Of a stretch of 64,000 nucleotides of DNA, positions 171 through 53,352 are shown piece by piece. The notes under the pieces are model-generated. The model saw nothing but the letters and a program-made list of their open reading frames with translations. It had not been told where the DNA came from and searched no databases. How positions within the stretch are numbered: the stretch's first letter is position 1; each line of letters begins with the position of its first letter. A program made the translations under genes and the position numbers. This DNA comes from Gammaproteobacteria bacterium (GTDB lineage Bacteria > Pseudomonadota > Gammaproteobacteria > Acidiferrobacterales > Sulfurifustaceae): the NCBI GenBank assembly GCA_016199745.1, contig JACQFZ010000049.1, positions 1 to 64,000 on the forward strand, read 5' to 3'.

Positions 171-293
171 TTCCCTCCCCTGCGCAGCGGGGGGTGAGGC
201 AGAGTTTTCGCGAGTGTCCGGTGGACACTCGCGCCGCCGAACGGGCGCGCTGAAGTTAGCGCGCACTGGGCGGGAATGGTTAGGGTGGGGGCG
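171..293 (-). repeat. 123-bp structured repeat, copy 1 (inverted relative to copy 2)
   Basis: The reverse complement of 171-293 aligns without gaps to 3559-3681 with about three mismatches. It contains two palindromes: CGCGAGTGTCC / GGACACTCGCG at 209-219 and 223-233, and GCGCGCT / AGCGCGC around 246-264. The stop codon of dctM (280-282) lies inside the repeat, so the final Pro-Pro-Pro of DctM is repeat-encoded. A diverged third copy lies at 53228-53352. Confidence 0.85.
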
Positions 294-1731
294 TTTGTGG
301 TTGTTGTTCGTTCCAGTGCGATTCCGGTGTCGATATGTCGCTACCGTCCAACGGCTGATATTCCGGTCTCGGAATTTCAATCTTATCGATATCAATCGTT
401 GGACTCTGCTCGACCCAGCTCGTCACCAAGCCCGGCCAGAAGATGACGACCAAAACCATCACCAGCTGCAGCCCCACCCACGGCAACGCGCCGAGGTAGA
501 TCTCGCTGCTCTTCACTTGCTTCGGCGCGATGCCGCGTAAATAACACAATGCGAAACCGAACGGCGGATGCATGAATGACGTCTGCATGTTCACGCATAA
601 CAACACGCCGAACCAAATTAAGTCGATGCCCATGTTGGCGGCAACGGGAGCGAGCATCGGCACGATGATGAAGGCGATCTCGAAGAAATCGAGGAAGAAC
701 GCCAAGAAAAATACGAATAGGTTAACGAATACCAGGAAGCCGACGACGCCGCCGGGTAACGACGATAAGTGATGCTCGATCCAGCGGCTGCCGTCCACAC
801 CCTGGAATACCAGACTAAAAATGGTCGAGCCGATCAGAATGAAAATCACCATGGCGGTGATGCGCATGGTGGTTTCCATGCCTTGTTGCACCAGCGGCCA
901 CGACAAGCGTTTGTGCAGCGCCGCCAAAACCAGGGCGCCGACGGCGCCCATGGCGCCGGCTTCGGTCGGGGTCGCCAAGCCCATGAAAATGGTGCCGAGT
1001 ACGAGGAAGATCAGTACCAGCGATGGCACCATGCCCCACAGCACGCGTTTGATCAGCGGCCAACCGTGCAGTGCGCGTGCCGACTTCGGTAGCGGCGGTA
1101 CCCACTGCGGTTTAATCAGCGAGATGACGAAGATATAAACGATGAACAACAGTGTTTGCAGGATCGACGGGCCGATGGCGCCGGCGTACATATCGCCGAC
1201 CGAGCGGCCGAGTTGATCGGCAAGCACGATCAGCACCAGTGAGGGTGGAATCAGTTGCGTGATCGTGCCGGACGCAGCGATCACACCGGTCGCGGTCTTC
1301 ATGTCGTAGCCGTAGCGCATCATGATCGGCAACGAGATCATGCCCATGGCGATGACCGAGGCAGCGACTGTGCCGGTGATGGCGCCGAGAATCGCGCCGA
1401 CGATGATGACGGCGTAGGCGAGGCCGCCGGGCACCGGCCCGAATAATTGACCGGTTCCTTCGAGCAGGTCCTCGGCCAGACCGCAGCGCTCGAGGATCGC
1501 GCCCATGAAAGTAAAGAACGGAATCGCCAGCAGCAGCTCGTTCGACAAAATACCGAACACGCGCAGCGGCAACGCCTGTAAGAAATCGACGGTGAAGAAG
1601 CCGAGTTTGATACTGACGAAAGCGCTGACCAAGCCCAGTGCCGCCAGCGAAAATGCCACCGGATAGCCGAGCAGCATGACGATCACCAGCGCGCCGAACA
1701 TCAACGGCGGCATCATTTCGACCGTGATCAT
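280..1731 (-). CDS. dctM: TRAP transporter large permease, DctM family
   Basis: This is the 483-residue large membrane subunit of a tripartite ATP-independent periplasmic transporter. It forms the ion-driven transport channel in the inner membrane. The sequence is almost entirely hydrophobic helices (about 12) and carries family features such as the early GYPVAFSLAALGL segment and the glycine-rich GAILGAITGTVAASVIAMG stretch. It is longer than the usual ~430 residues, mainly through a polar C-terminal tail (the last ~45 residues), whose end (PQTPPP) is encoded by repeat copy 1. Its start overlaps the end of dctQ by 4 bp, showing translational coupling in a dctQ-dctM operon. The binding protein dctP is transcribed divergently. 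Substrate is inferred from DctP as an alpha-keto acid. Confidence 0.93.
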   Translation of the reverse strand: MITVEMMPPLMFGALVIVMLLGYPVAFSLAALGLVSAFVSIKLGFFTVDFLQALPLRVFGILSNELLLAIPFFTFMGAILERCGLAEDLLEGTGQLFGPVPGGLAYAVIIVGAILGAITGTVAASVIAMGMISLPIMMRYGYDMKTATGVIAASGTITQLIPPSLVLIVLADQLGRSVGDMYAGAIGPSILQTLLFIVYIFVISLIKPQWVPPLPKSARALHGWPLIKRVLWGMVPSLVLIFLVLGTIFMGLATPTEAGAMGAVGALVLAALHKRLSWPLVQQGMETTMRITAMVIFILIGSTIFSLVFQGVDGSRWIEHHLSSLPGGVVGFLVFVNLFVFFLAFFLDFFEIAFIIVPMLAPVAANMGIDLIWFGVLLCVNMQTSFMHPPFGFALCYLRGIAPKQVKSSEIYLGALPWVGLQLVMVLVVIFWPGLVTSWVEQSPTIDIDKIEIPRPEYQPLDGSDISTPESHWNEQQPQTPPP

Positions 1732-2267
1732 TGCAGCGGTCGCTCGTAATGCGTGTCCATCGAGTAGCGACCGGTCAGAAAGCCGATGCGCTTGATGACT
1801 TCAGCGACGCCTTGTAACGACAACAGCGTGAAGCCGAGCGGCAGCAACAACTTAACCCACCACAACGTGAGGCCGCCCGGGTTGGCCGAGATCTCGTCGA
1901 GACGATACGAGTTGACGAAGAACGGCCACGCGAACCATGCCAACAGCACCGTCGCCGGCAACAGGAACAGCAGGCAACCGATCAAGTCGATCCAGGCGCA
2001 AACTCGCGGCGGCAAGCGGTTGTAAAAAATGTCGACGCGCACATGTTCGTTCAGCTTGAGCGTGTAAGACGCACCTAGCATGACGATACCGGCGAACAGA
2101 TACCACTGCACCTCGAGCCACGCGTTCGAGCTCATGTGCAGCGCGTAGCGCACCAGTGCGTTGCCGGCACTGATCAAACACGCCAGCAGCACCGCCCAGT
2201 TCGCCAGCTTGCCGAAGCCCTTGTTCAGCGTGTCGATAGCACCGGCGATTTTCAACAGTAAATCCAT
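1728..2267 (-). CDS. dctQ: TRAP transporter small permease, DctQ family
   Basis: The 179-residue small membrane subunit has four predicted transmembrane helices, with the family motif YTLKLNEHVRVDIFYNRLPPR in the middle (around residues 65-85). It partners the large permease and helps dock the periplasmic binding protein. A purine-rich sequence (AAGGAG on the minus strand) precedes the ATG at 2267. About 100 bp separate it from the divergent dctP, so the promoters of both transcripts must lie at 2268-2367. Confidence 0.92.
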   Translation of the reverse strand: MDLLLKIAGAIDTLNKGFGKLANWAVLLACLISAGNALVRYALHMSSNAWLEVQWYLFAGIVMLGASYTLKLNEHVRVDIFYNRLPPRVCAWIDLIGCLLFLLPATVLLAWFAWPFFVNSYRLDEISANPGGLTLWWVKLLLPLGFTLLSLQGVAEVIKRIGFLTGRYSMDTHYERPLQ

Positions 2268-2367
2268 AGCTACTCCTTGTGGGTGCTCCGGCGGAACGTG
2301 ACTATAGTCAATGACGGTTCAGATATGCTATTAGCCGTCACCACGTTGTCACCACCAAGGAGGAAAA

Positions 2368-3468
2368 ATGACCGACAAGAATAGACGCTCGTTCCTGAAG
2401 CAAGCCGGTGCCGGCGTGGCCGTAGGCGCCGCCACCGTTACCGGTGCGGCGATCGCCGCGGAATCGCCGGCGGTCAAATGGCGTTTGGCATCGAGCTTTC
2501 CGGAGAGTTTGGACACTATTTATGGTGGTGCGCAATATTTGGCGGAACGCGTGCGCAAGCTCACCGACGGTAAGTTCGACATCCAAGTGTTTGCCGCCGG
2601 CAAGATCGTGCCGGGACTGCAAGTCCTGGAAGCAGTGCAGAACGCGACGGTGCAGTGCGGTCATACCGCGAGTTACTACTTCGTCGGCAAGAACAAGGCG
2701 TTTGCGTTCGACTGCGCGATTCCGTTCGGTCTGACGGCGCGCCAGCAAAATGCCTGGATGTACTATGGCAACGGTTTGAAGCTCACGCGCGAGTTCTTCG
2801 CCGACTACAACATTCTCAATTTCCCGGGCGGCAACACCGGCACGCAAATGGGCGGCTGGTTCCGCAACGAAATCAAATCGGTCGCCGATCTCAAAGGCAT
2901 CAAGATGCGGATTCCCGGCTTCGGCGGTGAGATCATGTCGAAGCTCGGCGTCATTCCGCAAACGCTGGCCGGCGGTGACATCTATCCGGCGTTGGAAAAG
3001 GGTACGATTGATGCCACCGAATGGGTCGGCCCGTACGACGACGAGAAGCTCGGCTTCTATAAGGTCGTTAAGAACTATTACTACCCGGGTTGGTGGGAAC
3101 CGGAGGCACAGCTGTCGTTGTACGTGAACGCCAAAGAGTGGGATAAGTTACCGAAGCCCTATCAAGAAGCGTTCAGCAGCGCTGCCGCCGAAGCCAATCA
3201 ATACATGACCGCCGAGTACGACTCGAAAAATCCGCTGGCGATTCAACGTTTGCTCGGTTACGGCGTGAAGCTGCATCGTTATCCGCAAGACGTGATGGTG
3301 GCGGCTTACAAGATTGCGTTCGAGCTGTTCGAGGACGAGGCCGGCAAAAATCCGGCGTTCAAGAAGATCTACACCGACTGGCTCAAGTTCCGCGGCACGG
3401 TACAACCGTGGCATGGATTGGCCGAGCATACGATGGAGAATTTCTTGTATACGACGGCGCGGAAGTAA
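2368..3468 (+). CDS. dctP: TRAP substrate-binding protein, DctP family, TakP-like
   Basis: This 366-residue periplasmic solute-binding protein starts after a strong AAGGAGG. The N-terminus has a twin-arginine signal (RRSFLKQAG followed by an Ala-rich hydrophobic stretch and cleavage after AIAA), so export should be by the Tat system encoded at 9337-10859. The mature part contains FPESLDTIYGGAQYLAERV, FPGGNTGTQMGGWFR and WVGPYDDEKLGFYK. From memory these resemble the alpha-keto-acid binder TakP of Rhodobacter and related lactate/pyruvate binders more than C4-dicarboxylate binders. Specificity for pyruvate-like acids is therefore inferred, and is strengthened by pyruvate carboxylase next door. 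Confidence 0.92.
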   Translation: MTDKNRRSFLKQAGAGVAVGAATVTGAAIAAESPAVKWRLASSFPESLDTIYGGAQYLAERVRKLTDGKFDIQVFAAGKIVPGLQVLEAVQNATVQCGHTASYYFVGKNKAFAFDCAIPFGLTARQQNAWMYYGNGLKLTREFFADYNILNFPGGNTGTQMGGWFRNEIKSVADLKGIKMRIPGFGGEIMSKLGVIPQTLAGGDIYPALEKGTIDATEWVGPYDDEKLGFYKVVKNYYYPGWWEPEAQLSLYVNAKEWDKLPKPYQEAFSSAAAEANQYMTAEYDSKNPLAIQRLLGYGVKLHRYPQDVMVAAYKIAFELFEDEAGKNPAFKKIYTDWLKFRGTVQPWHGLAEHTMENFLYTTARK

Positions 3469-3558
3469 ATCGTTTAGTTGATGGCGATAAGCCTCGTGGA
3501 TGAAAGTACCACGGCTTCGCAAGCGTGCAGGATGGAGAACAGCAACCACAACAACAAC

Positions 3559-3681
3559 CGCCCCCACCCTAACCATTCCCGCCCAGTGCGCGCTAACTTC
3601 AGCGCGCCCGTTCGGCGGCGCGAGTGTCCACCGGACACTCGCGAAAACCCCGCCTCACCCCCCGCTGCGCAGGGGAGGGGA
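3559..3681 (+). repeat. 123-bp structured repeat, copy 2
   Basis: It is the inverted partner of 171-293, ungapped with about three mismatches. Internal palindromes are GCGCGCT (3588-3594) with AGCGCGC (3601-3607), and an 11-bp stem CGCGAGTGTCC (3619-3629) with GGACACTCGCG (3633-3643) closing a 3-nt loop. Together with copy 1 it brackets the TRAP genes. Confidence 0.85.
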
Positions 3682-20207: not shown

Positions 20208-20560
20208 CGGAGTCAGCCAGACAGTCGCTCTGCCTTCAGTGGCGGAGAGGAAAGTCCGGGCTCCATAGGGCAGGGTGCCAGGTAACGCCTGGGCGGCGCG
20301 AGCCGACGGAAAGTGCCACAGAAAATATACCGCCTAAGCCTTCTCACGAAGGCCGGTAAGGGTGAAAAGGTGCGGTAAGAGCGCACCGCGCGGGTGGCAA
20401 CATCTCGTGGCAGGGCAAACCCCACCCGGAGCAAGACCAAATAGGGGAACTATGGTGCGGCCCGTACCGTTCCCGGGTTGGTTGCTTGAGGCGCACGGCG
20501 ACGTGCGTCCCAGACGAATGACTGTCCTCGACAAAACCCGGCTTATCGGCTGACTCCACA
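20208..20560 (+). ncRNA. rnpB: RNase P RNA (class A)
   Basis: This is the catalytic RNA that matures tRNA 5' ends. Long blocks identical to the E. coli RNA are visible: CCAGACAGTCGC, GGAGAGGAAAGTCCGGGCTCC with ATAGGGCAGGGTGCCAGGTAACGCCTGG, GGTAAGGGTGAAAAGGTGCGGTAAGAGCGCACCGCG, GGAGCAAGACCAAATAGGGG, and at the end ATGACTGTCC..GACA.AACCCGGCTTATCGG. The outer helix P1 is GGAGTCAGCC (20209-20218) with GGCTGACTCC (20548-20557). It lies between rsmI and mraZ, with P12 variable as usual. Confidence 0.98.
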
Positions 20561-20567
20561 CTTTTTT

Positions 20568-53227: not shown

Positions 53228-53352
53228 CCCCCTCTCCCCTTGCCATTCCCGCCCAGGGTGCGCCAGAACCGCGCGCACCCGTTCGGCGGCGCGAACACAC
53301 GTTAAGTGTGTTCGCGAAATCCCCGCCTCACCCCCTGCGAGGGGGAGGGGGA
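53228..53352 (+). repeat. Structured repeat, copy 3 (diverged, with covarying stems)
   Basis: Same orientation and block order as 3559-3681: CCATTCCCGCCCAG, then CCGTTCGGCGGCGCGA, then CGCGAAA-CCCCGCCTCACCCC. The variable stems differ from copies 1 and 2 but stay complementary: GGGTGCGC (53256-53263) with GCGCACCC (53273-53280), and CGCGAACACAC (53290-53300) with GTGTGTTCGCG (53306-53316). It lies between DUF3501 and the CNP1-like gene. Confidence 0.85.

What the first reader, a model, noticed from the sequence alone, without database searches (positions are those of the whole stretch)
53228..53352. Compensatory changes keep both hairpins of the repeat family
In copies 1 and 2 one stem is CGCGAGTGTCC/GGACACTCGCG; in copy 3 the same place has CGCGAACACAC/GTGTGTTCGCG, with at least five paired changes. 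The other stem likewise changes from GCGCGCT/AGCGCGC to GGGTGCGC/GCGCACCC. Single-stranded blocks between them are conserved (CCATTCCCGCCCAG, CCGTTCGGCGGCGCGA, CCCCGCCTCACCCC). This is the signature of selection on structure: an RNA element, a transposition substrate handled as a hairpin (REP/RAYT-like), or a protein-bound cruciform.
Basis: seen in the sequence. Interest (0 to 1): 0.7.

Follow-up and report, generated by a model that had tools for sequence, protein, structure and literature searches.

The report
Mobile hairpin DNA repeat, unclassified family
The three repeats in this window belong to a small, widely scattered DNA element that always folds into the same set of hairpins and gets inserted beside or inside genes in many Proteobacteria; it resembles the known REP repeats but carries neither of their known tags, and no enzyme that moves it has been found.

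Summary
The window genome has about 60 copies; related copies occur in 18 of 20 genomes of its family, in other Gammaproteobacteria and in Rhodobacteraceae. The unit is CCNG - hairpin H1 - CGYTC - GGCGG - palindrome H2 - 4-6 nt - CCGCC - TCRCC. In 78 distinct copies 97.9% of pair positions are paired and 23 of 25 pairs show two-sided changes (shuffles 18.6; slid controls 33-53% paired). Two supposed single-stranded blocks in fact pair with each other (GGCGG/CCGCC). G.T mismatches are no commoner than A.C, copies have no strand bias to genes, and no Rfam family matches: selection looks like it acts on DNA, not on a transcript. The TCRCC end is a precise junction: in seven gamma loci it abuts a duplicated end of the neighbouring tRNA or gene, and in eight alpha filled/empty comparisons the 49-50 nt module replaces exactly 7 nt. 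Best reading: a non-autonomous, REP-like mobile hairpin element joined at its TCRCC end by an unknown trans-acting enzyme. It fits neither the GTAG nor the CGTC REP superfamily; RAYT, IS110 and reverse transcriptase are not linked to it.

The parts
53246..53332 (+). copy 3, complete element core (TTCCCGCCCAG-H1-CGTTC-GGCGG-H2-AAATCC-CCGCC-TCACC)
   Evidence: 104.9 bits, E 2.1e-23
53256..53263 (+). H1 5' arm GGGTGCGC
   Evidence: covariation
53273..53280 (+). H1 3' arm GCGCACCC
   Evidence: covariation
53280..53284 (+). conserved CGYTC; its G-Y pairs with R-C of TCRCC
   Evidence: T-A 67, C-G 11, exception 1
53285..53289 (+). outer stem H3, 5' arm GGCGG
53290..53300 (+). H2 palindrome 5' arm CGCGAACACAC
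53306..53316 (+). H2 palindrome 3' arm GTGTGTTCGCG
53323..53327 (+). outer stem H3, 3' arm CCGCC
53328..53332 (+). conserved terminal TCACC, the precise 3' junction of the element
53228..53245 (+). flanking C-rich arm CCCCCTCTCCCC..., part of a separate GC-rich repeat in which the core is nested
53333..53351 (+). flanking hairpin/arm ...GGGGGAGGGGG of the same GC-rich repeat
3576..3659 (+). copy 2, complete element core
   Evidence: 93.6 bits
193..276 (-). copy 1, complete element core
   Evidence: 90.2 bits

Best explanation
It is a non-autonomous, dispersed palindromic DNA repeat that works like a REP-type mobile hairpin. Shown: one conserved architecture across Alpha- and Gammaproteobacteria; structure kept by two-sided changes without wobble preference; filled and empty alleles of the same gene; a precise TCRCC end joined after a C in the target. 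Inferred: the element is recognised as a folded single strand, cut at the foot of the H3/H2 stem (TCRC^C) and transferred to a similar C^C site by a host-encoded enzyme that is not linked to the copies; the other end is resolved less strictly, leaving a 7-nt replacement in Rhodobacteraceae or a duplicated gene or tRNA end in the gamma loci. Selection for folding acts at the moment of transfer or on the DNA itself, which keeps both hairpins while their sequence drifts.
For: About 60 copies in the window genome and copies in 18 of 20 family genomes, up to ~38 per genome. Covariation: (490 two-sided cells against 128 in shuffles). G.T not above A.C: 21/28 own, 1/5 relatives, 14/18 in 78 distinct copies. 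No strand bias to flanking genes (with gene direction 11, against 10, convergent 11, divergent 3). Mobility: filled/empty comparisons within homologous genes, eight with exactly 7 nt replaced. Junction: the 20 nt after TCRCC match upstream DNA at 17/20 or better in 20 of 163 copies against 4 of 815 controls; target cuts GAATC|C, AAATC|C, GAGTC|C (tRNA T-arms), CTAAC|C, AAGAC|C, CCGAC|C, GCCTC|C; flank +1 C 79%, +2 pyrimidine 83%.
Against: No enzyme found: RAYT not adjacent; IS110 and reverse transcriptase are absent from several high-copy genomes. The two ends behave differently in Alpha (7-nt replacement) and Gamma (long duplication), so one mechanism for both is an assumption. In two gamma loci the duplicated fragments differ mostly at third codon positions (13 of 15, p = 3e-5), so they diverged as genes before being joined, which a plain target-site duplication does not explain. 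H1 is missing in the alpha coding insertions.
Confidence: 0.6

Rival explanations
1. A structured non-coding RNA or mRNA-stability element: the hairpins are kept because a transcript folds.
For: Strong RNA fold (z -6.1); covariation; many copies lie downstream of genes.
Against: No excess of G-U over A-C mismatches; no orientation bias relative to genes; no promoter or terminator pattern; no Rfam family; highly variable copy number between relatives.
Confidence: 0.1
2. Passive palindrome: copies spread by homologous exchange and natural transformation, and the arms are kept identical by template-switch (quasipalindrome) correction, with no transposition enzyme. Hairpin 3' ends act as hotspots of illegitimate joining, which displaces gene ends.
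For: Two-sided changes with almost no intermediates; third-codon-position divergence of duplicated fragments points to recombination between diverged alleles; duplicated tRNA and gene ends.
Against: Exactly 7 nt replaced in eight alpha comparisons, and a constant TCRCC end with C/pyrimidine preference, look enzymatic; template-switch correction would not keep CGYTC/TCRCC and CCNG constant; spread to unrelated loci in one genome.
Confidence: 0.2
3. A REP sequence moved by a RAYT (TnpAREP) transposase, with GGTGAG on the other strand acting like the GTAG tag.
For: Own genome has 8 Y1_Tnp matches. Within the family, copy number is higher in Y1_Tnp-positive genomes (p = 5e-4). TnpAREP cuts single-stranded REPs at CT beside the stem (PMC8266576), and the target cuts here are often C|CT.
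Against: No GTAG tag; no RAYT next to element copies and no excess of copies next to RAYTs; an own RAYT is flanked by GTAG repeats of another family; presence over 116 relatives is not associated (p = 0.22); genome size and mobile-DNA load confound the copy-number trend.
Confidence: 0.15
4. A recombination site used by an integrase or by genomic islands (attC-like or att-like), since it sits at tRNA ends and carries displaced gene ends.
For: Cuts at three different tRNA T-arms, at TTCRANTC|C; tandem units of gene end plus element (L114, L119, L243).
Against: No cassette genes or island between the repeats in the loci examined; attC boxes RYYYAAC/GTTRRRY absent from the consensus; target sequence differs at each locus.
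Confidence: 0.05

Closest known systems
GTAG-tagged REPs / REPINs with RAYT transposases
   Same: Dispersed small palindromes, intergenic, sometimes in genes, often paired head to head; hairpin needed for processing (PMC8266576, PMC3733652)
   Different: No GTAG tag; two hairpin domains and an outer stem with an asymmetric loop; no linked RAYT
CGTC-tagged REPs (including Rickettsia palindromic elements)
   Same: Common in Alphaproteobacteria, found inside genes, no dedicated transposase known (PMC3733652)
   Different: CGTC repeats have 8-9 bp stems beginning AT, 4-5 nt loops and a CCA tail; here CGYTC...TCRCC ends, an 11-bp variable palindrome inside a GGCGG/CCGCC stem, and H1
IS200/IS605-derived minimal elements (PATE-like)
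   Same: Left and right subterminal hairpins; a short sequence 5' of the hairpin (GGCGG) covaries with a sequence at the cleaved end (CCGCC), like a guide/cleavage pair
   Different: IS200/IS605 insertion neither duplicates nor removes target bases (own knowledge); here 7 nt are replaced or a gene end is duplicated; no parent IS found
Integron attC sites
   Same: Folded single-strand site, variable hairpin with conserved base, tandem arrays
   Different: attC core boxes absent; no cassettes

Membership tests
GTAG REP / REPtron | unpaired GTAG tetranucleotide 5' of the palindrome | tested here: not met
   Consensus ends are CGYTC and TCRCC (GGYGA on the other strand)
GTAG REP / REPtron | RAYT gene flanked by the repeat | tested here: not met
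   0 of 147 element loci have a RAYT hit; 1 of 33 RAYT loci has a copy
GTAG REP / REPtron | dispersed short palindrome, mostly intergenic, high copy | tested here: met
CGTC REP | CGTC/TGTC/CCTC tag, 8-9 bp stem starting AT, 4-5 nt loop, CCA tail | tested here: not met
   Consensus of A4 against the definition in PMC3733652
Rfam RNA family | match above gathering score | tested here: not met
functional RNA (general) | wobble pairs tolerated on the transcribed strand | tested here: not met
   G.T 14 against A.C 18, p = 0.6; 21/28 and 1/5
MITE with terminal inverted repeats and short target duplication | TIRs at both ends and constant short direct repeat | tested here: not met
   No TIR at the core; constant 7-nt replacement or long duplications
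Integron attC | RYYYAAC / GTTRRRY boxes | tested here: not met
   Consensus
IS200/IS605 type | guide and cleavage sequences complementary | tested here: inconclusive
   GGCGG/CCGCC covary, but ordinary stem pairing gives the same pattern
IS200/IS605 type | HUH transposase acting on it | not testable with these tools
   needs biochemistry

The most novel reading that the evidence does not exclude
A third superfamily of REP-like mobile hairpins, spread over Alpha- and Gammaproteobacteria, that is moved by an undescribed strand-transfer enzyme cutting folded DNA at TCRC^C and joining it to C^C sites in tRNA arms and gene ends, rewriting gene ends as it goes.
Probability: 0.35. Interest if true: 0.85.

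Novelty: new variant of a known kind. Interest (0 to 1): 0.6.

Why it matters
CGTC repeats have been known for years without a mover (PMC3733652); here is a further palindromic family with the same puzzle, but with a precise end, a countable footprint (7 nt replaced) and target sites in tRNA arms, which makes the mover searchable and assayable. Inserted copies add about 14 residues in frame to genes of gene transfer agents and other proteins, so the family is also a source of new peptide segments. The very clean two-sided changes give a natural set for testing how palindromes stay perfect while their sequence changes.

Tried and rejected
RAYT as mover: adjacency tests negative. IS110 and reverse transcriptase: absent from several high-copy genomes. 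Alternative pairing of 5' CCCGCC with GGCGG, favoured by the RNA minimum-energy fold of copy 3: no two-sided change in 29 copies, so dropped. Search for a recurrent protein family beside the element: only housekeeping families and syntenic repeats. Phage records: none; plasmids: 6 weak hits. Literature by sequence motif: nothing relevant. Whole-phylum model scan: 6 of 397 other genomes, a lower bound because only 11 candidates per genome were scored. Gamma empty sites at nucleotide level were not obtained because flanks of relatives are too diverged.

Full report
Observation. The window holds three copies of one element: 193-276 (-), 3576-3659 (+) and 53246-53332 (+). The quoted stems are exact. 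The H2 stem of copy 3 differs from copies 1 and 2 by five paired changes. For H1 the three copies alone give only one aligned two-sided change and a shift in stem length.

Copy number. A DNA search of the window genome gives about 40 clear copies; a covariance model built from 29 of them gives about 60 (E-values are rough, about 48 copies score 67 bits or more). Among 116 genomes scanned with the same model, 24 are positive including the window genome, 18 of 20 in its own family, with 1 to 38 matches per genome.

Structure. In 29 copies aligned by MAFFT without structure, the model H1 + GGCGG/CCGCC + H2 has 95.2% paired cells, 13 of 21 pairs with two-sided changes and 91 two-sided cells, against 84.3%, 8.1 and 30 in shuffles and 26-66% paired cells in slid controls. 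In 81 copies from Alpha- and Gammaproteobacteria (78 distinct) it has 97.9% paired cells, 23 of 25 pairs with two-sided changes and 490 two-sided cells (shuffles 128). That alignment was fitted to the model, and the genome-contig loci were found with a pattern that fixes GGCGG/CCGCC, so for them only H1 and H2 are independent; H3 changes come from the other loci. A further pair, Y of CGYTC with R of TCRCC, covaries almost perfectly (67 T-A, 11 C-G, 1 exception). The competing pairing of 5' CCCGCC with GGCGG has no two-sided support.

DNA or RNA. Stem mismatches are G.T 21 and A.C 28 in own copies, 1 and 5 in relatives, 14 and 18 in the wide set (p = 0.6). A transcript under selection should tolerate G-U on its own strand. 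Copies lie mostly between convergent or tandem genes, rarely divergent ones, and point with or against the flanking genes equally often (11 against 10; genes called by a simple ORF rule). No Rfam family matches. DNA and RNA folds are both strong (z -5.5 and -6.1), so energy alone does not decide.

Wider family. An exact pattern (CGTTCGGCGG, 26-42 nt, CCGCCTCACC) finds the same architecture in Candidatus Muproteobacteria, Sulfuricaulis, Lysobacteraceae, Halomonas and Billgrantia, and in Rhodobacteraceae such as Rhodobacter, Thioclava, Frigidibacter and Jannaschia, along with chance hits that lack the hairpin. In viral contigs it sits inside reading frames of genes that look like those of the Rhodobacterales gene transfer agent (tail tape-measure-like and DUF2163-like, named from my own knowledge), read as peptides such as GEADKQTVRGTVCPPNG.

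Mobility. Homologous genes with and without the module show that it inserts. Two sites in the tape-measure-like gene are each filled in one contig and empty in the other. In eight filled/empty comparisons, representing about six distinct sites, the 49-50 nt module stands in place of exactly 7 nt.

Junctions in Gammaproteobacteria. The DNA right after TCRCC often repeats a nearby upstream segment: 20 of 163 copies match at 17/20 or better, against 4 of 815 control pairings. In L112 and L119 the segment is the 3' end of a tRNA cut in the T-arm (GGTTCRAATC|C), in L121 the same for another tRNA (GAGTC|C), and in L114, L151 and L243 the start of a protein gene. The order is gene - B - element - B, repeated in tandem in some loci. 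In L151 and L243 the two B copies differ at 15 positions, 13 of them third codon positions (p = 3e-5): the fragments diverged as coding DNA before they were joined. This suggests joining between different alleles, as when DNA from a relative recombines on one side by homology while the element's end is joined on the other. After TCRCC the first base is C in 79% and the second a pyrimidine in 83% of distinct flanks.

Mover. The window genome has eight Y1_Tnp matches, but one of its RAYTs carries GTAG-type repeats of its own, none of 147 element loci contains a RAYT hit, and 1 of 33 RAYT loci has a copy, about what density predicts. Within the family, copy number is higher where Y1_Tnp is present (p = 5e-4), but presence over 116 relatives is not associated (p = 0.22), and genome quality and mobile-DNA load confound it. 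IS110 and reverse transcriptase are absent from several high-copy genomes.

Known kinds. Di Nocera and colleagues divided REPs into GTAG and CGTC superfamilies and noted that CGTC repeats lack a dedicated transposase (PMC3733652). TnpAREP cuts single-stranded REPs at CT beside the stem and depends on GTAG (PMC8266576). The present element meets neither tag definition. It works like a REP in being a dispersed palindrome found between and within genes, but it is not filed as a member of either superfamily.

Verdict. A real, widespread, DNA-level hairpin element, mobile by comparison of alleles, mover unknown. The step from precise ends to an enzyme acting on a folded single strand is inference.

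Noticed in passing
L119 (G075), whole locus: A tRNA-Met gene is flanked on both sides by tandem arrays of the element, each unit carrying a fragment of the nearest tRNA end.
   Followed up: partly
L006, L007, L011, L015: In several own copies the element lies inside a ~330 bp repeat with terminal inverted repeats around CCCGAGTCATTAATTC, a separate MITE-like family.
   Followed up: no
53228-53245 and 53333-53351, and most own copies: The core is nested in GC-rich repeats (CCCCTCTCCC...GGGAGAGGGG or CCCACCCCCACCC...), often as head-to-head pairs where one arm has lost the hairpins.
   Followed up: partly
L038 1330-1360 and 1915-1945: A RAYT gene flanked by GTAGGATGGGTGAAACCCATC repeats, a typical GTAG REPtron, independent of the element studied.
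   Followed up: partly
L424, L429, L441, L484: DUF2163-like gene-transfer-agent gene with the element followed by a partial duplication of the gene end with diverged sequence.
   Followed up: partly
window 193-3659; L146, L163, L243: Copies 1 and 2 flank a TRAP transporter operon (DctM/DctP); element copies also lie near TRAP transporter genes in Muproteobacteria contigs.
   Followed up: no
L149 394-441: Weak Rfam match (below cut-off) of the element to Brucella sRNA BASRCI153, perhaps because that sRNA overlaps a related repeat.
   Followed up: no
window 20209-20561: Bacterial RNase P RNA, class A, complete.
   Followed up: no
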